Shown here in pieces: positions 32,730-43,341 of a stretch of DNA of 43,341 nt. Position 1 is the stretch's first letter, and the number at the start of each line of letters is the position of its first letter. The stretch lies in assembly GCA_022616535.1 (NCBI GenBank), contig JAKEEM010000004.1, forward strand, positions 1 to 43,341, written 5' to 3'. The position numbers and the translations under genes are program-made. Source of the DNA: Chlorobiota bacterium (GTDB taxonomy: Bacteria; Bacteroidota; Ignavibacteria; Tepidaquicellales; OLB5). The notes under the pieces are model-generated. The model was not told the origin of the DNA. It saw only the letters and a list, made by a program, of their open reading frames with translations, and did no database searches.

Positions 32730-34922
32730 TTATTTTTCGTTTCCTGTCGGGTCCTCTACAGGTGCACCTTCTTCCTTCTTCATCGGAGTTTCGGGATTTT
32801 CCTCTTTTAACTCTTCGGATTTATTTTCAATTTTTTGGATGTTATTTTCTTCCAGCGGCGGCGGCTCGTTTTTCAAAGAATCATTTGAAATCACTGTGCT
32901 GTCAACTGGTGCTTTAAAACTTTCGTATGCACTAACTTTTCCGGAAATCAACGATGCAGCTTCTGAGTCAGGCACAGCTTTTACAAGTGATGAATAATAG
33001 AAATAGGCACTGTCGGGGTTCATTAAAATATTTTCGTAAATCCATCCGCAGGCGTAAAGAGCCTTATCCAGATGTTTAGAGCCGGGAAAAGAAACTATAA
33101 TTTCTTTAAAGCCGCTGAGTGCTGCTTCATAGTCTTGTGCTACAAACTTTTCCTCTGATACAAAAAACAGGCTGTCGCTTGAGTCATAAGTATTTTCATT
33201 AACCGCAGAAATACTTAGAAGCGCTCTTGTGGAATTTGCAACAGTTGAGTTGGGGAACTCGCGGATAATCTGCCTCAGAACCTCCTCGCTCTTTGCTTCA
33301 TTATTAAGGGTTCTGAATAAATCTGCAAGCGCAAAGAGAACTTTCGCTTTAAAATCATAATCCCCGGACTGCTCAAACGCCTGATTAAGGTAATACTCGC
33401 TTGAATCAGGCTCGCTCAAATCATACAAAAACAGCTCGGCAAGCTCAAACTTGGATTTTGCGATTTCCTCTTCCTTAATTCTGGCTGAATCGACCTGGGA
33501 CGTTTCAAGCGAGTCATAATAATACGTGCCGCTTAGCCCGCTTGGCTTCCCGATACCTTCTCCTTCGTCGCCTTTTTCTTTATTTTCGATTCCGTTTTCC
33601 CCCTCTTTGCCTGTCTTAATTTTAAACTCATTGTCATAATCTGTATTAATCACGCTGCCTGATATCTTGGACTGCAACTCGAAATATTTTTTAAAAATTT
33701 CTATTTTTCTGCTTGCCTCCGAACTGTATGTGCCTGCTCCCTGCTCGGTTGAATACTTGTAGTATCGGTAAGAGTTCAAATAATCTTTAAGCTTATTTTC
33801 ATAATAACGTGCTATTCTAAAGCTGGCATCCGAAGATGGAACTGAAGAAGGATAATTAGTGATTACGAAGTAATACTGGTTCAGTGCTCTTTTGTTATCA
33901 CCTTTTTGCTCGTAATAAGTGCCCTTCAGGAAGTAGATTTTTCCCAAAAATTCCGGATTATCTTTGTAACTAACTTCCAAATCTTCAAGAGACCTCTGAG
34001 CTTTAGCAAAATCATTGCTTAAAATCAGATTTTTCGAATAATTAAATCTTGCGAGGTATTCCAAATCAAATGATGTATCGTAGTCCAATACTTTGCTGAA
34101 TTCCCTCACCGCCGATTTAGGGTTCAGTCTTGCAGTAACGGAGGCAACAATGAACTGCATCTGGGCTTTGAATTCATTATCACTTGAAAGCTTAATTGCC
34201 TTTTTAAAATTTTTTATAGAACTCTCGTAATCTTTTTTACTGAGATAATATTCAGCGACTGTCTGGTAACTTTCTGAGACAACCTGTTTATCTTTGGAAG
34301 TTTTTATCAGATTTTGAAGTCGTTCAAGTGCCGGCTTTTCATTATCGAGCCTGAGCTGTGTTCTTGCGTGAAACAGCAGCGCTTCATCCAGCAGCTTACT
34401 TGAAGATAAGCGCGAGGCAAACTCGCCGAATTTTCGCTCGGCTTTAAGGTAATCGCCCAAGTAGTAGTATGATTTTCCCACCAGAAGGACGGCTTTATCC
34501 ATAAACTCGCTGCTTTTGTGATACTGAATCACCTTTGACGCCTTCTCTATTGCCTTGTTGAAGTTATCCTTAGCTTCCTGTGAAAGATTCGGCTTTGCAA
34601 AAACAGTGTCGATTCTTTCATTGTAATTTACAAGGTCTCTTGTAACATAATCTTCGTATGCATTATCAAAGTTTTCAAGCGCGTTGAAGTAAGTATTAAA
34701 ATACGTTCCGAAGTTTTCAATACGATTGCCGATAAACATATAGCTTGTAAAGTCCTGAAAATCTTCGTCAAGTGTCAGCTTATAATTCGGCTCGGGGTCA
34801 TCGATGTGCTCATTTGTCTTTTCGTCGTAGGTCTTATAATTGAAGGTCGAGCATGCCTGAAAAAAAACTGCTGTAAAAAGGGCAAGAAAAGTGATGATTT
34901 TAAGCATTTTTTGAAATTTCAT
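32730..34922 (-). CDS. TPR-repeat outer-membrane lipoprotein, PorW/SprE-like candidate
   Basis: This protein of about 730 residues starts with a lipoprotein signal (ITFLALFTAVFFQACS). Many tetratricopeptide-type helical repeats follow. The segment FNKAIEKASKVIQYHKSSEF followed by VLLVGKSYYYLGDYLKAERKF resembles the N-terminal repeats of PorW/SprE, a TPR lipoprotein needed for type IX secretion and gliding in Bacteroidota. A low-complexity segment (about 430-450) and a Pro/Glu-rich tail (about 675-731) flank a second TPR block. The window contains four T9SS cargo genes, so a secretion role is plausible. A BamD/YbgF-like role is the alternative. The ATG at 34922 is preferred over a TTG one codon earlier. 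It diverges from lon. Confidence 0.6.
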   Translation of the reverse strand: MKFQKMLKIITFLALFTAVFFQACSTFNYKTYDEKTNEHIDDPEPNYKLTLDEDFQDFTSYMFIGNRIENFGTYFNTYFNALENFDNAYEDYVTRDLVNYNERIDTVFAKPNLSQEAKDNFNKAIEKASKVIQYHKSSEFMDKAVLLVGKSYYYLGDYLKAERKFGEFASRLSSSKLLDEALLFHARTQLRLDNEKPALERLQNLIKTSKDKQVVSESYQTVAEYYLSKKDYESSIKNFKKAIKLSSDNEFKAQMQFIVASVTARLNPKSAVREFSKVLDYDTSFDLEYLARFNYSKNLILSNDFAKAQRSLEDLEVSYKDNPEFLGKIYFLKGTYYEQKGDNKRALNQYYFVITNYPSSVPSSDASFRIARYYENKLKDYLNSYRYYKYSTEQGAGTYSSEASRKIEIFKKYFELQSKISGSVINTDYDNEFKIKTGKEGENGIENKEKGDEGEGIGKPSGLSGTYYYDSLETSQVDSARIKEEEIAKSKFELAELFLYDLSEPDSSEYYLNQAFEQSGDYDFKAKVLFALADLFRTLNNEAKSEEVLRQIIREFPNSTVANSTRALLSISAVNENTYDSSDSLFFVSEEKFVAQDYEAALSGFKEIIVSFPGSKHLDKALYACGWIYENILMNPDSAYFYYSSLVKAVPDSEAASLISGKVSAYESFKAPVDSTVISNDSLKNEPPPLEENNIQKIENKSEELKEENPETPMKKEEGAPVEDPTGNEK

Positions 34923-35102
34923 CAAATAAAGTTAAGCGTTTAATATGGAACTTTCAATTTAAAACGTATGGATTTGGTATATAATTTCACTTAAATAATC
35001 GCATTTGACAGCGGTTAAGTGAGGTTTACTGACCTGACACTTCTGTTAACTATGGAACTTAGGGTTAATTAAAAACGATTAAACATAGTGATTTTAAACT
35101 TA

Positions 35103-35141: not shown

Positions 35142-37580
35142 ATGAGTGAAACAGAGGAAAAAACCCAAACAATCGATGAATCCTTAATCAGTAAGACAAA
35201 TCTGCCGACAGCCCTGCCGGTCGTCCCGTTAAGGGATATTGTTATCTTCCCGTACATGATGTACCCCATCCTAGCGGGCAGGGAGTCAACCATCAGTGCT
35301 ATCAATTATGCACTTGAGCGCGAGAAATACATTATGATTATAACGCAGAAGGATTCGAAGATTGAGGACCCCGAGCCTAAACATCTTTACAGCTGCGGAA
35401 CTGTTGCAAGAATACTTCAGGTTATTAAGCTTCCTAATAACCTGATTAAAGTATTAATCGACGGGCTTGCCCAGGCAAAGGTTTTAAGCTTCAGGCAGAA
35501 CAATTTTCTTGAAGCAGATATCGAATACAACTTCTCAAAGATTGAGGAAACAGTTGAACTGAAGGCGCTTGTGAGACAGGCATCACGGCTGTTTCAGGAT
35601 TATATTTCGAACAACCGGAACGTGGCGCAGGAGTCGCTTCTTGCTTATGAAAATATAAAGGAACCCGACAGAAAGCTTTATTATATTGCCTCCACAATTC
35701 TCGTATCACTTCAAAGGAAGCAGAGAATACTTGAGCTGAATTCAATTATTGAGCAGTATTATGAGCTTATTAACATTTTAAGCTCTGAGCTTGAGATATT
35801 TAAAGTCGAAAAAGACATCGAAGCCAAGATAAGCCACAGCATGCAGAAAAACCAAAGAAGGTTTATAGTTCAGGAACAGATAAAAATACTTCAGGAAGAG
35901 TTAAATGAGGAAGACGAAACCGACCCCGAGTTCATTAAACTGAAGGAGCAGATACAGAATTCCAAAATGCCGAAGGAAGTAATGGAAAAGGCAATGGAGG
36001 AATTTAATAAGCTCAAGAAAATCCCGGCAATGTCACCGGAGGCAACTGTATCGCGCAACTACCTTGACTGGATGGTAAGCGTGCCGTGGAATACATATAC
36101 AAAAGATAATCTTGATATAGCACACGCAAAAAAAATACTTGACGAAGACCATTTCGGACTGGAAAAACCAAAGGAAAGGGTTTTAGAGCACATTGCAATT
36201 TTAAACAACCTTGAAAGGATAAACAAAGGAAAAAAAGAAAAAGCAGACCTGAAGGCAAGGGCTCAGATATTATGCCTTGTCGGACCACCGGGAGTTGGCA
36301 AAACCTCTCTTGGAAAATCGATAGCAAGGGCGCTTAACAGAAAATTCGTGAGAATATCTCTCGGAGGTGTTAGAGACGAGGCAGAAATCCGCGGGCACAG
36401 AAGAACTTACATCGGCTCAATGCCGGGAAAGATAATACAATCGATGCGCAGGGCAGCAACGTGCAACCCGATTATACTAATGGATGAAATCGATAAAATG
36501 GGGATGGATTTCAGGGGCGACCCGGCAAGCGCGCTGCTTGAAGCTCTTGACCCGGAGCAGAACAACACGTTTAATGACCACTATCTTGACGTTGACTACG
36601 ATTTATCGAAGGTGCTTTTTATAACGACGGCTAATGTGCAGTATGCAATTCCCCTGCCGCTTCAGGACAGGATGGAAATAATCCATATGTCAGGCTACCT
36701 TGACCACGAAAAGCTTGAAATTGCCAAAAGACACATAATACCCAAGCTTTTAAAAGAACACGGCTTATCAGAAGAAGAGGTCGTAATACCCGACGGTGCA
36801 ATAAAAAAATTGATAAACGAATATACAAGGGAAGCAGGTGTGAGAAACCTTGAGCGGGAAATTGCCTCATTAATGAGAAAGATAACAAAGGAACTCGTCT
36901 TAAAGAAGGTGAAAGTAAACGGAGTAAAGCAAAAGAAATCCGAGGCACTTAAAATTACAGGCGAGCTGGTTGAAAAATACCTTGGTGTCCCGAAATTCAA
37001 GGAAAAAAGAGCCGATAAAGAGGATAAGGTCGGCTCGGCCGTTGGTTTGGCGTGGACTTCAATGGGAGGCGATATACTTGATATCGAAGTCAGCGTTATG
37101 CCCGGTAAGGAAAAACTGACTTTAACCGGACAGCTTGGCGATGTTATGAAAGAATCGGCTTTTGCGGGACTCTCTTATATCCGTTCAAACGCAAAAAAAT
37201 TCGGCTTAACAAATTCGTTTTTCTCTAATAAAGAAGTGCATATTCATATTCCCGAAGGAGCTATACCCAAAGACGGTCCTTCTGCGGGAATAACAATGAC
37301 TATTGCAATGCTCTCTGCATTAACAGCCATCCCATCACGCTCGGATGTTGCAATGACGGGTGAAATAACCTTGAGAGGAGAGATCCTTCCAATAGGAGGG
37401 CTTAATGAAAAGCTCCTGGCCGCGCAGAGAAGCGGGATAAAAACCGTTTTAATACCGAAGGAAAATCAAAAAGACCTGAAAGAAATACCTGATAAAATAA
37501 AGGAAGGACTGAAGATTGTTACGGTCGAAAATCTGGAAGATGCGCTGAAGTATATCTTCAAAAAGAAATTTAAGAAGTGA
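35142..37580 (+). CDS. lon: ATP-dependent protease Lon
   Basis: Lon unfolds and degrades damaged and regulatory proteins as a hexamer in the cytoplasm. The 812-residue protein has the substrate-binding N-domain ([20 protein letters not shown]). The AAA+ domain has Walker [10 protein letters not shown] (381-389) and Walker [11 protein letters not shown] (443-452). The P-domain has the Ser-Lys dyad (Ser714 in [11 protein letters not shown], Lys757 in [10 protein letters not shown]). All key residues are intact and length is normal for LonA. It starts very close to a consensus promoter. No CIRCE/HrcA-like inverted repeat was seen upstream. It ends immediately next to the stop of the convergent barrel gene, with no spacer. 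Confidence 0.96.
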
Positions 37581-38453
37581 TTATTTTAAGATTTTATCAG
37601 GAAGTCTGTATTTTTTCTCCTTAACACCGAAGAAATAGCTGATTCCAACACTGCCTGAGTAATATGCGAACTGTTTCCAGCCGGCAAATAAAACAGGGTC
37701 GTCTCCTGTCGGAATAGGGTCGTCATTAAGATGAGTTTCAAAGTGAGTCGAGCCTTCGGGAATTTGCTCCCCAACTTCGGTATCCTTCATAAGCAAATTA
37801 GCGTGTGTGAATTTGAAACCGAGATTAAGCCCGATATTTCTGGCAAAAGCATATTCAAGCCCGACAAACACGGAATAACCAAGCCTGATTCCGGATTTTA
37901 TATCAACGCTGATTACGTTATTATCCTGCGTGTTCATAAGCCGTGAACTTCCTGAAATAGAGCTTATCAGCGTGTTGGCTCCTATAAAATACTTAACTTT
38001 ATGAGTCGGTGTGAAGTTATACTCCATACCTACCCCTCCGTTAATTGAATTGTAAGCAACCTCTCCTTCCTGGTCGTTGCTTGCAATCATATTGCTTTTA
38101 AACCTGTCGAAACCGGTTACAATATCAATCCAAAACTTTCCGGTTTTATTAATGGGGATTTTACCGATGAGATTAAAGCCAAAGCCGTTTCTTACGCCAA
38201 ATGTTTTACCCTCAAGCAAATCCTGCCTGCTGAAACCGCCGTTGTGAGAAGTAAGCTCCATAGCCCCGCTGTTGTAGCCGCCGTTAAAGTGGAGTATGAA
38301 CTTCGGAACGGTTCTGAGAGTAACAATTGTGATGATTTTAGTCTTTTTTGTTACAACTGTATCGATTTTCAGCTGGTAATTCTGTGAAAATAAATTATTA
38401 CTGTAAATTAAAACAAAAACAAGTAATATTTTTAAAAATAGCTTATTCATCAT
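37581..38453 (-). CDS. outer-membrane beta-barrel paralog 1 of the SPOR/barrel cluster
   Basis: This 290-residue protein has a signal peptide (FLKILLVFVLIYSNNLFSQ). A barrel follows with the features shared by all members of the cluster: KFILHFNGGYNSGAMEL near the start, FGVRNGFGFNLIGK, EGEVAYNSINGGVGMEYNF, FIGANTLISSISG, and the last strands GWKQFAYYSGSVGISYFFGV then KEKKYRL. Alternating aromatic and small residues suggest 8-10 strands. No enzymatic motif is seen and I do not recognise a named family. The ATG overlaps the stop of paralog 2 by 4 bases, so the two are co-translated. It is the last gene of the SPOR1-barrel2-barrel1 unit. Confidence 0.7.
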   Translation of the reverse strand: MMNKLFLKILLVFVLIYSNNLFSQNYQLKIDTVVTKKTKIITIVTLRTVPKFILHFNGGYNSGAMELTSHNGGFSRQDLLEGKTFGVRNGFGFNLIGKIPINKTGKFWIDIVTGFDRFKSNMIASNDQEGEVAYNSINGGVGMEYNFTPTHKVKYFIGANTLISSISGSSRLMNTQDNNVISVDIKSGIRLGYSVFVGLEYAFARNIGLNLGFKFTHANLLMKDTEVGEQIPEGSTHFETHLNDDPIPTGDDPVLFAGWKQFAYYSGSVGISYFFGVKEKKYRLPDKILK

Positions 38454-39283
38454 CTCGTATTTTTCATTCCGAAATAGTAATTTATGCCGGTATAAAACTG
38501 GCTGTAAAGAAATTGTTTCCAGCCGGAGTAAGCCGGAGGATTCGGGTCGTTTGACTTAATTTTATCATCGTTTAAGTAGGTTTCGCTCGGGCTGTTTGAA
38601 GCTTTGTTCTGGCGCCCGATAAGATTTGCATGGGTTAAACGGTAACCCAAATTAAAGCCAACTCTGTTGTTGAAAGCGTATTCGAATCCGAGATTTAAGC
38701 TTAAGCCGACTCTGAAAGAGCTCCTTATTCTCAAATTAAAATCGGTTGAATCGGTCGCAAGTACTGCTTTGCCGCTGATAAAATTGGCAATTATATCAAG
38801 CCCTACATACGGCTTAATTTTCTTTTGCGGCGAAAAATTATTTTCAACGCCTAATGAACCTGAAAAAACGTTATAGGCTACCTTCCCTTCGGGAGACTCG
38901 GATATAACAAAATTGCTTAAAAACCTGTTATATGATGTCCCTACATTTAATCTTATATATCCTTCTTTATTCAGCCGGATTTTCCCTAAGAGGGAAACAC
39001 CGAAGCCGTACCTTGTGCCGAAATTTCTTCCCAGCTCAAAATCATCTTTTCTGAATCTTGTATTATCATCGGAAGCAAGGTCCATATGCCCAATATTATA
39101 AGCAAAACTTAACTGCAGTGTTACCATAGGAGCCTTACCGCGCTTGAGCATGTTAAAAATCTTTTTATTTGCAGGAAAATTGTATGATGTGTCTTTGGAT
39201 GTAAAGCTTGTCTCCGGCTGAGAAAATAACTCAGTTCCGGTAAGAGAAATCATTATTGATAATATTAAAAATTTGAACTTCAA
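38450..39283 (-). CDS. outer-membrane beta-barrel paralog 2
   Basis: This barrel has about 277 residues. From the TTG at 39283 it reads MKFKFLILSIMISLTGTELF then SQ, a good signal peptide starting 13 bases after the SPOR1 stop. An ATG at 39331 would add 16 residues and overlap SPOR1 by 35 bases, so I prefer the TTG. Cluster motifs are present: LQLSFAYNIGHMDL, FGTRYGFGVSLLGK, IRLNVGTSYNRFLSNF, EGKVAYNVFSGSLGVENNF, PYVGLDIIANFISGKAVL and GWKQFLYSQFYTGINYYFGM. It is closest to paralog 4 by eye. Function unknown. Confidence 0.7.
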   Translation of the reverse strand: MKFKFLILSIMISLTGTELFSQPETSFTSKDTSYNFPANKKIFNMLKRGKAPMVTLQLSFAYNIGHMDLASDDNTRFRKDDFELGRNFGTRYGFGVSLLGKIRLNKEGYIRLNVGTSYNRFLSNFVISESPEGKVAYNVFSGSLGVENNFSPQKKIKPYVGLDIIANFISGKAVLATDSTDFNLRIRSSFRVGLSLNLGFEYAFNNRVGFNLGYRLTHANLIGRQNKASNSPSETYLNDDKIKSNDPNPPAYSGWKQFLYSQFYTGINYYFGMKNTR

Positions 39284-39296
39284 GCTGCTTGTTCTG

Positions 39297-39743
39297 CTAT
39301 TTAATTTTCTTTGTAATAACAAATGCGTCAAAGTATCCTAAGCGTCTTGCTTGTTCCCAATACTTCATTGCCTCTGCGCGGTTATTAAAAGTGCCTATTC
39401 TTATTTTATATATACCGTTCTGCAATTCATAATATACATCGCCGCCTACCTTCTGCTTGGCCAAAGCAAGAAATCTTTCGAAGTTATCTTTATTAATGAA
39501 AGCACCGATCTGAACAGTAAATGTAAAGGTTTCTTTTACTTTAACATCTAATTTCAGCTCTTCTTTTTTAGTTATATCCTCTTTTATATCCGTGATAATT
39601 CCAATTGTATCTATTACCAGTGTTTTTTCATCATAATCGACTCTATACTCGGCAATATCATATTCACCGGAACTGCACCCGATGTAAGAAAAACTTAAAA
39701 AAATTAAAAATAGTAATATATGTATTTTCACAAATTTTAACAT
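39297..39743 (-). CDS. SPOR-domain lipoprotein 1
   Basis: This 148-residue protein has a lipoprotein signal (ILLFLIFLSFSYIGC) and an acidic linker of about 50 residues. The C-terminal SPOR domain reads FTVQIGAFINKDNFERFLAL, YYELQNGIYKIRIGTFNNRA, then YWEQARRLGYFDAFVI. SPOR domains bind peptidoglycan glycan strands stripped of stem peptides, often at division septa. With a lipid anchor, the protein would bridge a membrane and the cell wall. The residues after the lipid cysteine (CSSGEYDIAEYRV) resemble those of barrel paralog 4 (CGSGSYNIEKGDV). It is the first gene of its unit, 188 bases after the upstream barrel 3 and separated from it by a terminator. Confidence 0.8.
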   Translation of the reverse strand: MLKFVKIHILLFLIFLSFSYIGCSSGEYDIAEYRVDYDEKTLVIDTIGIITDIKEDITKKEELKLDVKVKETFTFTVQIGAFINKDNFERFLALAKQKVGGDVYYELQNGIYKIRIGTFNNRAEAMKYWEQARRLGYFDAFVITKKIK

Positions 39744-39870
39744 AAATCAATATAGTTCATAATCTTATCAAAAACAATGATTATAAAGAAAAAAATTAGA
39801 AAAAACTATTAATTTTATTAAATTTAATGCGGTTAGCAATTTATAGAATCCCCCTTTGTACAATATAAAA

Positions 39871-39909
39871 CAAAAAAGGTTAGCTACAAATAACCAAAAT
39901 AGCTAACCT
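39871..39909 (-). terminator. rho-independent terminator after barrel paralog 3
   Basis: On the minus strand AGGTTAGCT (39909-39901) pairs perfectly with AGCTAACCT (39885-39877) around a 15-base loop, followed by TTTTTT. It lies 23 bases after the paralog 3 stop and divides the barrel/SPOR array into separate transcription units. Confidence 0.8.
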
Positions 39910-39931
39910 ATGAAAAATTTCTTGTATTATA

Positions 39932-40756
39932 TTAATTTAATTTATATTTCTTCTCCTTAACGCCAAAATAGTACCCAATCCCCAAAACTATCGAATAAAA
40001 TGAAAAATTCTTGTTCCCTGCAAATTTCAGGTTAGGGTTATCAGCATCCCTTAATTTAAATTCCCTATCTGAGTTATTCCCCTCTGCCTGCCTGAAAAGG
40101 GCGTTTGCATTGGTAAACCTTGCACCAATATTAAGCCCTAAATCGTTTGCAATTAGATATTCGGAGCCGACCATAAAACCATACCCCATACGGAAGCTGT
40201 TTAATATATCGTATTCCTCCACATAGGGCTCACCGATACCCCTGTTTTCAAACCATATTTTAGCGTGCCCGTTAATCATACTTGCATTCAGCTCGGCAGC
40301 AAGAAAAATTTTATAGCGGTGCCCGGGCGTAAAGTTATATTCAAGTCCCAAGGCACCTGTGAAGCAGTTATAGGTAGCTTTGCCGTCATCGGCTAAAGTG
40401 GTTTTATCGCCAAATGTGTAAGAAAGGAGCCTGTTATAAGTAAGCGACTGAATAAATCTGATATCGCCCCTGTTTGTGAGTGACATCTTTGAAATTACTG
40501 ATGCCCCATATCCTTTATCAGCCCCGAATGTTTGTCCGTCATAAATATACTCCGACCTTACGTCATCGTTGTATGTTCCCGATAATTCCAAAACAGCCTG
40601 ATTATAATTTAAGCTGAACTGAACCGTATACTTAGGTGAACTCCTGAGAAGCATGTATCTTTTAATCTGAGTTCGCTGTCCGTAAACCAAACCCGAGGCG
40701 GAGAGAAGAATTACAATAACTGCAAGCTTTATTTTTAGGCTAAACTTATCCCCCAT
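39932..40756 (-). CDS. outer-membrane beta-barrel paralog 3
   Basis: This 274-residue barrel has signal peptide LAVIVILLSASGLVYG-Q. Shared features are KYTVQFSLNYNQAVLEL, FGADKGYGASVISK, IRFIQSLTYNRLLSYTF, GKATYNCFTGALGLEYNFTP, AAELNASMINGHAKI, FRMGYGFMVGSEYLIAND, LNIGARFTNANALF and the end GNKNFSFYSIVLGIGYYFGV with KEKKYKLN. Its C-terminal sequence is also the best match to the partial fifth paralog (LRDxxxxxLKFxGxKNFxFY). It starts 11 bases after the paralog 4 stop and is followed by a terminator. Function unknown. Confidence 0.7.
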   Translation of the reverse strand: MGDKFSLKIKLAVIVILLSASGLVYGQRTQIKRYMLLRSSPKYTVQFSLNYNQAVLELSGTYNDDVRSEYIYDGQTFGADKGYGASVISKMSLTNRGDIRFIQSLTYNRLLSYTFGDKTTLADDGKATYNCFTGALGLEYNFTPGHRYKIFLAAELNASMINGHAKIWFENRGIGEPYVEEYDILNSFRMGYGFMVGSEYLIANDLGLNIGARFTNANALFRQAEGNNSDREFKLRDADNPNLKFAGNKNFSFYSIVLGIGYYFGVKEKKYKLN

Positions 40757-40767
40757 TTGAGAAATAG

Positions 40768-41631
40768 CTATTTATTGAACTGGTAAACTATATCTTTAAT
40801 ACCCAAATAAAAATTCACTCCAACAAAAAAAGTTGTAAACGTAAAGTTTTTAAAACCCCCGAATTCCAGCGGACCGTTGACAACCTTTTTATCCCTGATA
40901 TTAATTTCATTGGGGTTGTTATTGGATTCAGATTTTTTTAAAACCTGATTGGCATTTGTTACCTTTAAGCCGACATTAACTCCAAACCTGTTATTAAACA
41001 TATATTCCAGGCCTGAATAAACCATGTAGCCGATTCTGAAAGTATTTTTTATCGTAACAGTTCTTGTTGTGTTATTGGTTAAATTGTTAAGACTTGCTTT
41101 TCCGGAAATAAAGTTTACCTGGATTTCACCGGCAATATAGGGCTTGAGCCTGAAGCTGGGGCTGAACGAATTTTCAAGTCCAACGCCAATGCTTAAGACG
41201 TTATAACCCACGCTTCCGTAAGGTGACTTGCTTGTGAAAAAATTACTTTGAAAGCGGTTGTAGCCGGTGCTTACGTTTAACCTTACATTGCCTTCCTTAT
41301 GCAATGGCAGTTTCCCGATCACCATAAAGCCAAATCCGGTTCTGACGCCGAAGTTTTGTCCCTCTAAAAATTGCTGAGTATCTAAAACAGTGGAATAGTT
41401 GGAAGAAAGCTCAGCCATTCCCAAATTTAAACCACCTGAAACTTGAAGTGTAAATAAGGGAGCGCTTTTGATTTTATAAAAATTTTTTAACTTAGCTCCG
41501 GTCGATTTATACTTGAGAGTATCTTTAACATCTCCTTTTTCAATGTTATAGCTACCCGAACCGCAGCCAAATAAAAAAATAAATCCTATAATTATAGGGG
41601 CTATAGAAAAATACTTAAATTTCAAAATCAA
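40768..41631 (-). CDS. beta-barrel paralog 4 with a lipoprotein-type N-terminus
   Basis: This protein of about 287 residues has the same barrel as its neighbours: LFTLQVSGGLNLGMAEL, FGVRTGFGFMVIGK, VRLNVSTGYNRFQSNF, YGSVGYNVLSIGVGLENSF, GEIQVNFISGKASL, FRIGYMVYSGLEYMFNN, FGGFKNFTFTTFFVGVNFYL. Unlike them it begins with a lipoprotein signal, FSIAPIIIGFIFLFGC, followed by GSGSYNIEKGDVKD, which resembles the SPOR lipoproteins. It may be a lipidated barrel, or may have gained this N-terminus by recombination. The start is a TTG at 41631. A second TTG two codons later gives MKFKYF, like the MKFKFL start of paralog 2. Confidence 0.7.
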   Translation of the reverse strand: MILKFKYFSIAPIIIGFIFLFGCGSGSYNIEKGDVKDTLKYKSTGAKLKNFYKIKSAPLFTLQVSGGLNLGMAELSSNYSTVLDTQQFLEGQNFGVRTGFGFMVIGKLPLHKEGNVRLNVSTGYNRFQSNFFTSKSPYGSVGYNVLSIGVGLENSFSPSFRLKPYIAGEIQVNFISGKASLNNLTNNTTRTVTIKNTFRIGYMVYSGLEYMFNNRFGVNVGLKVTNANQVLKKSESNNNPNEINIRDKKVVNGPLEFGGFKNFTFTTFFVGVNFYLGIKDIVYQFNK

Positions 41632-41723
41632 GAAATTTCTACTAAATTTTAAGTAGTTAGTCCTTTCTATTACAACTAAAATATTAAGAAAAAATCATAA
41701 ATGCAATAATCTTTTACTACTTA

Positions 41724-42242
41724 CTATTCCTTTGTAGTTTCCACGACAAATGTATCTGTAAAACCCTTATCGAAAATTTTGTTAAGAACAACAGCAGCAT
41801 CTTCAAGCGAGCCATAAGAACCGATTCTGATTTTATACATTCCGCCTACCTTTACGTAGTCAATATCCTGAATTTTTAGGATTTCTTTAGCTTTTTCAAC
41901 AAAATCAGAGATAAATTCTTCTGTATTAAAAGCGCCAATCTGAACTGAAAATGACTTATTAAGGCTAAGATTTTCGCTTGTTTTATTGGTCTTTCCCTTT
42001 AGAGTTCCGCTGTCTCTTATTTCCAGATTTATAACAACGGTTTCTTCAGGAGTTCCGCTATCTCTGTATTCTTTTTTAATATCTGTTTTTTCTGACTTTA
42101 CATCTCCGGCAGTCTGCTTAGGAGATGCGCCAATGTCTTCAGATTCAACCAATTCCATTTCATTTTCACTTGAACCACAGCCCGCTAAAACAAAAAATAC
42201 TATCAGTAAAAGTAGGGTCTTTACCTTAATGAATTTTTTCAT
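41724..42242 (-). CDS. SPOR-domain lipoprotein 2
   Basis: This 172-residue protein has a clear lipobox (LLLLIVFFVLAGC, Cys22). A linker of about 75 residues is acidic and Ser/Thr-rich with two RDSGT units. The C-terminal SPOR domain reads SFSVQIGAFNTEEFISDFVE, VKVGGMYKIRIGSYGSLEDA, FTDTFVVE. It is expected to sit in the periplasm, anchored by lipid and contacting denuded peptidoglycan. It precedes barrel paralogs 4 and 3 with a 92-base spacer, giving a SPOR-barrel-barrel order like that of the SPOR1 unit. That repeated order supports duplication of a whole module. Confidence 0.8.
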   Translation of the reverse strand: MKKFIKVKTLLLLIVFFVLAGCGSSENEMELVESEDIGASPKQTAGDVKSEKTDIKKEYRDSGTPEETVVINLEIRDSGTLKGKTNKTSENLSLNKSFSVQIGAFNTEEFISDFVEKAKEILKIQDIDYVKVGGMYKIRIGSYGSLEDAAVVLNKIFDKGFTDTFVVETTKE

Positions 42243-42436
42243 GTATTTTGCTCCAATTTTTTAATTGTTATGTCCTATTTTTGAATAATTTAGACTGCAA
42301 AATACTACGAAAAGACTATACCCTACAATACCGTTTAATAGGTATGAATACTACTGAAAATACACTATTAACTTGTCACCTCTTTAAGGGGCATGATTTT
42401 ATTTTTTACGTTTTAGCTTGGTTTTGCTTACTTTAT

Positions 42437-42901
42437 CTACCGCTTTTCTACTTTTAAGCTTGTTAATTCAACAACAAAACAGTCCATATAGCCTGCATTC
42501 TGGACTACAGGTAAAAAATTAATTGCCGCCTCTTTTGAGGCGAAACTGCCAAATCTGACCTTGTACAACCCGTCAACATCCTTATAATATATTTCTTCAT
42601 TAACCAGTTTTTTCTGAGCCCTTTTCATTAGAGAATAAGCCCGTCTTTCTTCATTAAATGCGCCGATTTGTATTATATATACTCTCGAAACCACTTCTTT
42701 TTCGGTGTATTTGGGTTCAGACGGGGTCTCGGTTTTTACTTCGGTTGTTTGCTCTTTTACATCGCTTACGGGTTCTGGTTCTTTTTTTACTTCCTCAACA
42801 GGCTCTTCGACTTCGATAATCTGATACATCGGTGAATTACAGCTTGAAACAAACGCTAATATAAGCAAAAGCCAAAAATATTTGATTTTACTTTGAATCA
42901 T
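42437..42901 (-). CDS. SPOR-domain lipoprotein 3
   Basis: This 154-residue protein has a lipoprotein signal (YFWLLLILAFVSSC, Cys21). A Glu/Val/Pro-rich linker (about 28-66, with VEEPVEEVKKEPEPV) could span the periplasm. The SPOR domain reads VYIIQIGAFNEERRAYSLMK, YYKDVDGLYKVRFGSFASKE, NAGYMDCFVVEL. Its upstream region carries an 18-bp tandem duplication that doubles a GGAGGG ribosome-binding-like site. It follows barrel paralog 5 by 308 bases and precedes SPOR2 by 194 bases. Role inferred as for the other SPOR lipoproteins. Confidence 0.8.
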   Translation of the reverse strand: MIQSKIKYFWLLLILAFVSSCNSPMYQIIEVEEPVEEVKKEPEPVSDVKEQTTEVKTETPSEPKYTEKEVVSRVYIIQIGAFNEERRAYSLMKRAQKKLVNEEIYYKDVDGLYKVRFGSFASKEAAINFLPVVQNAGYMDCFVVELTSLKVEKR

Positions 42902-42936
42902 TTGATATACTACCCTCCTTTGATATACTACCCTCC
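42901..42936 (-). repeat. 18-bp perfect tandem duplication doubling the Shine-Dalgarno of SPOR3
   Basis: TTTGATATACTACCCTCC occurs twice (42901-42918 and 42919-42936). On the minus strand each copy reads GGAGGG followed by TAGTATATCAAA. The proximal copy places GGAGGG 11 bases before the ATG, with the A of the ATG supplied by the unit's last base. Only the proximal copy is followed by TG. Confidence 0.85.
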
Positions 42937-43209
42937 ATAGCTGTAAAAATAATCTCTTTATAAGTTAAATACAAGTTTCCTTTATGTTTGCACAAAATCT
43001 AAAATACAAGTGATATTCCCATACTTCAATACAGTGTTCAGGGGAGAAGCTTATTCAGTATTACAAGGGCTCAAGTATGTATTTTTAAATCTTGCTCTCA
43101 AATTATGAGCAGCAAAAACAAGAAAATAAATAATAATCCGACAAATTCTGAAATTGAAAATTTTATTTTAAATTCCAAATCTTTTTCCTTATTAGTGTTA
43201 TTTAAATTC
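42937..43209. other. intergenic region between SPOR3 and barrel paralog 5
   Basis: No gene, clear terminator or consensus promoter was seen in this AT-rich stretch. It is the longest gap in the barrel/SPOR array and is a likely site for a SPOR3 promoter. Confidence 0.4.
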
Positions 43210-43341
43210 TCATTTAATTTTATAGGACTTATGTCCTACTCCAAAGTAGAAGTTGACCCCAAGAGATATGGTATAGAAAGTAAAATTTTTATCTCCTGAA
43301 AACTTCAGCTCCTGCTTGGAGTTTGAATCTCTTAATTGAAA
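43210..43341 (-). CDS. beta-barrel paralog 5, C-terminal 43 residues (cut by window edge)
   Basis: A minus-strand frame runs from the window end to a TGA at 43212-43210. It reads FQLRDSNSKQELKFSGDKNF and then TFYTISLGVNFYFGVGHKSY with a KIK end. This matches the end of paralog 3 (FKLRDADNPNLKFAGNKNFS then FYSIVLGIGYYFGVKEKKY) and paralog 4 (FTTFFVGVNFYLGIKD). It is therefore the last strands of a fifth member of the same barrel family, whose start lies beyond the window. The plus-strand open frame over the same bases (43105-43299) is a shadow. Confidence 0.75.
   Translation of the reverse strand, partial: FQLRDSNSKQELKFSGDKNFTFYTISLGVNFYFGVGHKSYKIK

What the first reader, a model, noticed from the sequence alone, without database searches (positions are those of the whole stretch)
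37581..43341. Array of five paralogous outer-membrane barrels interleaved with three SPOR lipoproteins
Seen: five minus-strand barrel proteins share motifs along their whole length (FGxRxGFG...GK, YNRFxSNF, GxVxYNxxxGxxGxE, FISGxAxL, final GxxYFG). They alternate with three short lipoproteins ending in SPOR domains. The order SPOR-barrel-barrel occurs twice (SPOR1-b2-b1 and SPOR2-b4-b3). Known: SPOR domains bind denuded peptidoglycan; barrels sit in the outer membrane. Inference: a duplicated module in which lipid-anchored SPOR proteins tie specific barrels to the wall or septum. I know of no named system with this layout.
Basis: partly seen in the sequence, partly recalled or inferred. Interest (0 to 1): 0.72.

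Follow-up and report, generated by a model that had tools for sequence, protein, structure and literature searches.

The report
Conserved barrel and wall-binding lipoprotein cluster
A run of small outer-membrane barrel genes mixed with lipoprotein genes that probably grip bare cell-wall sugar strands is kept in the same order across one family of Ignavibacteria, a group that appears to lack the usual Tol-Pal link between outer membrane and wall, so it is a good but unproven candidate for a replacement link.

Summary
The window has four complete paralogous barrels (b1-b4), the last 43 residues of a fifth (b5), and three lipoproteins with C-terminal SPOR domains (S1-S3). b5 is completed on contig C56, which overlaps this contig's end by exactly 101 bp. 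In 14 same-family genomes the order lon | b1 b2 S1 b3 b4 (S2) S3 recurs almost wherever contigs reach. The conserved core is S3-b4-b3 plus S1-b2-b1; S2 and b5 are sporadic. b4 is predicted to be an eight-stranded barrel (pLDDT 79.5; VIA Z 15-17 to E. coli OmpA, NspA and a Legionella porin), and b2 models alike. All 14 b4 sequences carry a lipobox cysteine, so b4 looks like a lipid-anchored barrel. The SPORs keep the residues used to bind denuded glycan. TolB was not found in 30 genomes of the order. This genome has only two OmpA domains, both on PD40 proteins. Best reading: a split OmpA-like tether or septal anchor, with barrel and wall-binding module on separate polypeptides. Direct SPOR-barrel contact is not shown: AlphaFold placed no interface, and the sister family has similar SPOR pairs without barrels. 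Co-duplication is neither shown nor rejected. No named system with this layout was found.

The parts
37581..38453 (-). b1: eight-stranded-type outer-membrane barrel, type I signal peptide
   Evidence: own clade with 100/100 support
38450..39331 (-). b2: barrel; Pfam OMP_b-brl above cut-off; start probably about 17 codons further in
   Evidence: clade 100/99; an orthologue modelled as an eight-stranded barrel
39297..39743 (-). S1: lipoprotein (lipobox, linker of about 50 residues, SPOR domain at 39312-39524)
   Evidence: groove residues kept
39932..40756 (-). b3: barrel, most divergent of the four
   Evidence: clade 100/99
40768..41631 (-). b4: predicted lipid-anchored eight-stranded barrel
   Evidence: Lipobox Cys invariant in 14 of 14 sequences; model pLDDT 79.5, eight strands; fold matches
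41563..41565 (-). codon of the predicted lipidated Cys23 of b4
41724..42242 (-). S2: accessory SPOR lipoprotein (SPOR at 41742-41960), present only here and in two relatives
42437..42901 (-). S3: SPOR lipoprotein (SPOR at 42470-42685), the core SPOR upstream of b4
   Evidence: PDB 1x60 SPOR domain E 1.1e-7
43210..43341 (-). b5: last 43 residues of a fifth barrel; rest on contig C56 (101-bp exact overlap)
   Evidence: groups with the b3 clade
35142..37580 (+). lon protease gene, convergent with b1; conserved neighbour, not thought part of the system

Best explanation
The cluster most likely encodes an outer-membrane to wall linkage built from separate parts. [quoted passage not shown] The eight-stranded barrels b1-b4, one of them (b4) itself lipid-anchored, are the membrane half and are held or gathered where the SPOR proteins bind. 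It works like OmpA, but with barrel and wall-binding module on different polypeptides and with denuded glycan as the ligand. This would help the outer membrane follow the wall during division in bacteria that appear to lack Tol-Pal. Shown: conserved cluster, lipoboxes, SPOR domains with their binding residues, barrel fold prediction, no TolB match. Inferred: glycan binding in these proteins, septal location, contact between SPOR lipoproteins and barrels, and the role in division.
For: Conserved order and spacing in the family: S1-b2 0-15 nt in relatives, b4-b3 6-12 nt in nearly all. SPOR residues matching Q270, F274, R309 and R311 of P. aeruginosa RlpA (PMC6895207) are kept: Q in 30 of 30, F or Y, and K-x-R in nearly all S1 and S3. 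The b4 model is an eight-stranded barrel closest to OmpA-type barrels. b4 lipobox 14 of 14, and its post-cysteine stretch is as conserved as the barrel (0.74 against 0.44-0.54 in b1-b3). No TolB in 30 genomes of the order, this one included; only two OmpA domains in this genome, both PD40-OmpA. One Amidase_3 present to make denuded glycan. Extracellular loops about as conserved as strands, which fits a structural role.
Against: The readthrough model of S1 with b2 left the S1 linker at pLDDT about 30 with pTM 0.53, so no contact was predicted (27 sequences only, artificial fusion). Sister-family SPOR lipoprotein pairs have no barrels beside them. One genus keeps a likely S3 apart from b4. The 108-212 nt S3-b4 gap (where S2 is absent) and the 150-207 nt b3-S1 gap suggest that S3, b4-b3 and S1-b2-b1 may be separate transcripts. 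Some genomes of the family have further OmpA-domain proteins.
Confidence: 0.4

Rival explanations
1. Neighbours only: a tandemly grown barrel array and independent SPOR division lipoproteins share a locus and perhaps expression, but do not work together.
For: Sister-family SPOR pairs stand alone; barrel arrays of four to five copies occur beside an LptF/G-like permease gene without SPORs in the same family; no predicted contact; a likely S3 is apart from b4 in one genome.
Against: S1-b2-b1 is tightly packed in every genome that covers it, across three genera; b4 carries a lipobox and a post-cysteine stretch resembling that of S1.
Confidence: 0.3
2. Surface antigens or adhesins: an Opa/NspA/OmpX-like array facing the environment.
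For: Fold and weak profile similarity to NspA and Opa60; several paralogues.
Against: Extracellular loops are about as conserved as the strands in all four orthologue groups, unlike variable surface antigens; strict one-to-one orthology over the family.
Confidence: 0.12
3. Small diffusion channels or solute-binding barrels (OmpW-like), with the SPOR lipoproteins unrelated or only stabilising.
For: OmpW among the fold and Pfam matches.
Against: No transporter genes in the conserved neighbourhood; does not explain the SPOR genes or the lipid anchor.
Confidence: 0.1
4. Accessory part of type IX secretion: barrels akin to PorG or SprF with a wall anchor.
For: PorW/SprE homologue nearby at 32730-34925; a likely S3 next to PorW in one genome; the genome has Por_Secre_tail proteins.
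Against: No Pfam match to PorP_SprF or PorG-type families in 38 members; no C-terminal cysteine pair, which SprF uses to join GldK (PMC12635249); PorW was not found beside the cluster in the other genomes mapped.
Confidence: 0.06

Closest known systems
E. coli OmpA (eight-stranded barrel plus wall-binding domain)
   Same: b4 model aligns to the OmpA barrel at Z 15.5 over 168 residues, 2.9 A; OmpA links outer membrane to wall
   Different: No OmpA-type wall-binding domain in the barrels; here the wall-binding module is SPOR, on separate lipoproteins; b4 has a lipobox
SPOR lipoprotein RlpA and other SPOR proteins (FtsN, DamX, DedD)
   Same: SPOR domain above cut-off with the glycan-contact residues
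   Different: S1-S3 hold only lipobox, linker and SPOR; no transglycosylase domain found; genes lie among barrel genes
Tol-Pal
   Same: Would serve a similar end, holding the outer membrane to the wall at division
   Different: No TolB and no Pal-sized OmpA-domain protein in this genome
OmpM of diderm Firmicutes
   Same: A barrel-based tether used instead of OmpA/Pal (PMC10628300)
   Different: OmpM has porin and wall-binding part on one chain; large trimeric porin
TamL of Bacteroidota (lipid-anchored barrel)
   Same: A barrel with a lipoprotein signal (PMC12045153)
   Different: TamL has POTRA domains and a 16-stranded barrel; b4 is a small eight-stranded barrel
Legionella Dot/Icm porin III (PDB 9nh2)
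   Same: Top VIA match, Z 16.7 over 184 residues, 3.1 A
   Different: 16% identity; shared fold only, no evidence of shared function

Membership tests
SPOR domain proteins (PF05036) | Pfam score above the curated cut-off | tested here: met
   34.0-49.7 bits against 21 in S1-S3
SPOR domain proteins (PF05036) | Conserved glycan-contact residues (Q270, F274, R309, R311 of RlpA) | tested here: met
   Q 30/30, F/Y, K-x-R in nearly all S1 and S3; R lost in the S2 of two relatives
SPOR domain proteins (PF05036) | Binding to denuded glycan and septal location | not testable with these tools
   Needs experiment
RlpA lytic transglycosylases | Double-psi barrel catalytic domain | tested here: not met
   Only SPOR found in Pfam above cut-off; NCBIfam RlpA match covers only the C-terminal part, far below cut-off
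Eight-stranded OmpA/NspA/OmpX/OmpW-type barrels (fold) | Closed eight-stranded barrel | tested here: met
   AlphaFold b4, eight membrane strands; Foldseek E to 4.9e-7, VIA Z 11-17. Prediction, not experiment
OmpA family tethers | C-terminal OmpA-like wall-binding domain on the same chain | tested here: not met
   No PF00691 in the barrels
Pfam OMP_b-brl (PF13505) | Score above curated cut-off | tested here: inconclusive
   b2 37.2 against 28.7 passes, b1 21.4 does not, b3 and b4 no match; 29 of 38 family members at E 0.01 or better
Lipid-anchored proteins (b4) | Lipobox with invariant Cys after a signal sequence | tested here: met
   14 of 14 sequences by pattern; lipidation itself not tested
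Type IX barrels (SprF/PorP, PorG) | Family profile match and cysteine pair in the C-tail (SprF) | tested here: not met
   No such Pfam family among matches of 38 members; no C-tail cysteines
Tol-Pal system | TolB with Pal | tested here: not met
   TolB_N absent in 30 genomes; the two OmpA domains of this genome are on PD40 proteins of 588-592 aa

The most novel reading that the evidence does not exclude
A dedicated Tol-Pal-independent outer-membrane anchor: SPOR lipoproteins and a lipid-anchored small barrel form one complex that couples the outer membrane to denuded septal wall in an order of bacteria without TolB.
Probability: 0.2. Interest if true: 0.75.

Novelty: new variant of a known kind. 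Interest (0 to 1): 0.5.

Why it matters
How diderm bacteria without Tol-Pal keep the outer membrane attached and pull it in at division is open. This locus gives a compact, conserved and testable candidate: a split OmpA-like tether with SPOR as the wall-binding half. The lipid-anchored eight-stranded barrel is an unusual membrane protein in its own right.

Tried and rejected
Rfam found nothing in the window. The simple Bacteroidota promoter motif (TTTG-N-TAnnTTTG) was not found consistently before any gene. No plasmid relatives of b4. Whole-module duplication could not be decided by tree tests. A split of S1 and S3 older than the split from the sister family was considered: the sister-family SPORs form their own clade (100/99), so it is not supported, but the rooting of S1 against S3 is unresolved. 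An acidic linker to basic barrel-tail contact was considered; similar basic tails occur on barrels elsewhere in the genome, so the idea has little weight. A readthrough S1-b2 chain was folded as a stand-in for a complex and showed no contact. BA9 has no b1/b2 hit, but its lon is only 61% identical, so missing contigs cannot be excluded. PorW-type type IX membership was considered and set aside for lack of profile or cysteine evidence.
Full report
What is there. The window is one whole contig (C53) of an assembly of 2.9 Mb in 77 contigs, 98% complete. Its last 5.8 kb carry, on the minus strand, four complete paralogous barrels, the end of a fifth and three SPOR lipoproteins. The last 101 bases of contig C56 are identical to the start of this contig's reverse strand, which completes b5. 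In transcription order the array is b5-S3-S2-b4-b3-S1-b2-b1, convergent with lon.

Conservation. A search of related genomes found b4 orthologues at 60-65% identity in 13 of the 14 other members of the same family. The exception, G006, has S1-b2-b1 on a short contig. Mapping showed the same order lon | b1 b2 S1 b3 b4 (S2) S3 almost wherever contigs reach. Named records from a separate scan are all Ignavibacteria, among them Chlorobi bacterium OLB5 and UBA2360. S2 occurs only here and in two relatives. b5-like barrels occur in two further genomes, between an iron-sulfur protein gene and lon. Gaps inside the units are small, while 150-207 nt separate b3 from S1 and 108-212 nt separate S3 from b4 where S2 is absent. 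Two exceptions are useful: in G002 a likely S3 lies elsewhere, beside a PorW homologue, and in isolate BA9 S3-b4-b3 stands without S1-b2-b1. So the array is made of units that can be separated.

History. Each of b1, b2, b3 and b4 is a clade with full bootstrap support, so the paralogues predate the family; b5 falls with b3. Their branching is unresolved: b1+b3 81/73, b2+b4 p 0.13, b1+b2 p 0.38, b3+b4 p 0.30, while b1+b4 and b2+b3 are disfavoured at about p 0.03. This permits, but does not show, duplication of a SPOR-barrel-barrel module. In the sister family the small SPOR lipoproteins are usually a tandem pair, at a conserved locus next to folD and often near deoC (these two named from sequence by eye), without barrels. 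SPOR-barrel adjacency is therefore a feature of this family, and similar SPOR lipoproteins can exist without the barrels.

The barrels. Sequence profiles place them only in general barrel families, with weak PDB profile hits to Opa60 and NspA. AlphaFold2 of b4 with 38 aligned sequences gave pLDDT 79.5, pTM 0.74 and eight membrane strands, plus a short strand before the first and after the last. Foldseek and VIA-align put it with OmpA, NspA, OmpW and Legionella porin III. b2 also modelled as an eight-stranded barrel. Extracellular loops L1 and L4 are 60-83% identical within orthologue groups, close to the strands, which argues against variable surface antigens.

A lipid-anchored barrel. All 14 b4 sequences have a lipobox with an invariant cysteine, while b1-b3 nearly all have ordinary signal peptides. 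The 28 residues from the cysteine on are 74% identical in b4 against 44-54% for the same stretch in b1-b3. They begin CGSGSYxIE, reminiscent of S1 (CSSGEYxxE) and S3 (CNSxxYEI). Profile scores between b4 and S1 are suggestive only (E about 0.002-0.03 for the best among 84 N-termini). Lipid-anchored barrels are known, for example TamL (PMC12045153), but that is a 16-stranded POTRA protein.

The SPOR proteins. Each has a lipobox, an acidic linker of roughly 50-70 residues and a SPOR domain. The residues that contact denuded glycan in P. aeruginosa RlpA (PMC6895207) are kept in S1 and S3, and partly lost in the S2 of two relatives.

Setting. No TolB was found in 30 genomes of the order, this one included, while controls with Tol-Pal scored. 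This genome has two OmpA domains, both on PD40-OmpA proteins. Ten of 15 sister-family genomes searched have no OmpA domain at all. One Amidase_3 is present. A conserved set of SPOR lipoproteins is thus a plausible main link between outer membrane and septal wall.

Mechanism and its limits. The favoured reading is a split OmpA-like tether acting at denuded, probably septal, wall. Contact between SPOR lipoproteins and barrels is the untested step. A stand-in model, reading through the S1 stop into b2 in one relative, gave pTM 0.53 and a disordered linker, no support for an interface. The alignment is shallow and the fusion artificial, so this is weak negative evidence. Independent neighbours remain the strongest rival.

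Verdict. No paper in the held library joins SPOR domains with Ignavibacteria.

Noticed in passing
32730-34925: A PorW/SprE-like type IX secretion lipoprotein (E 2.7e-54, 185 bits, below the 250-bit equivalog cut-off) lies on the far side of lon.
   Followed up: partly
L068 3481-6885, L069 5361-10029, L070 6284-10969, L076 6257-10978: A second array of four to five distant barrel paralogues next to an LptF/G-like permease gene and without SPOR genes, conserved in the same family.
   Followed up: partly
L102-L111 and L116, about 7.3-8.9 kb in most: In the sister family, small SPOR lipoproteins (mostly tandem pairs) sit at a conserved locus next to folD and often near deoC, with no barrels nearby.
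   Followed up: partly
genomes G000-G029: TolB was not found in any of 30 genomes of this order, and most sister-family genomes have no OmpA domain; Tol-Pal may be missing from the whole order.
   Followed up: partly
37581-43341 with contig C56 60000-68397 (L066): Relative to the other genus, the lon-to-S3 segment appears inverted next to the iron-sulfur protein gene and b5.
   Followed up: no
L085 8392-10694: Isolate BA9 has S3-b4-b3 with no S1-b2-b1 downstream on the same contig, and no b1 or b2 orthologue found elsewhere in the held assembly.
   Followed up: partly
43210-43341 and G000:C56:68297-68397: Contigs C53 and C56 overlap by exactly 101 bp and can be joined through the b5 gene.
   Followed up: yes
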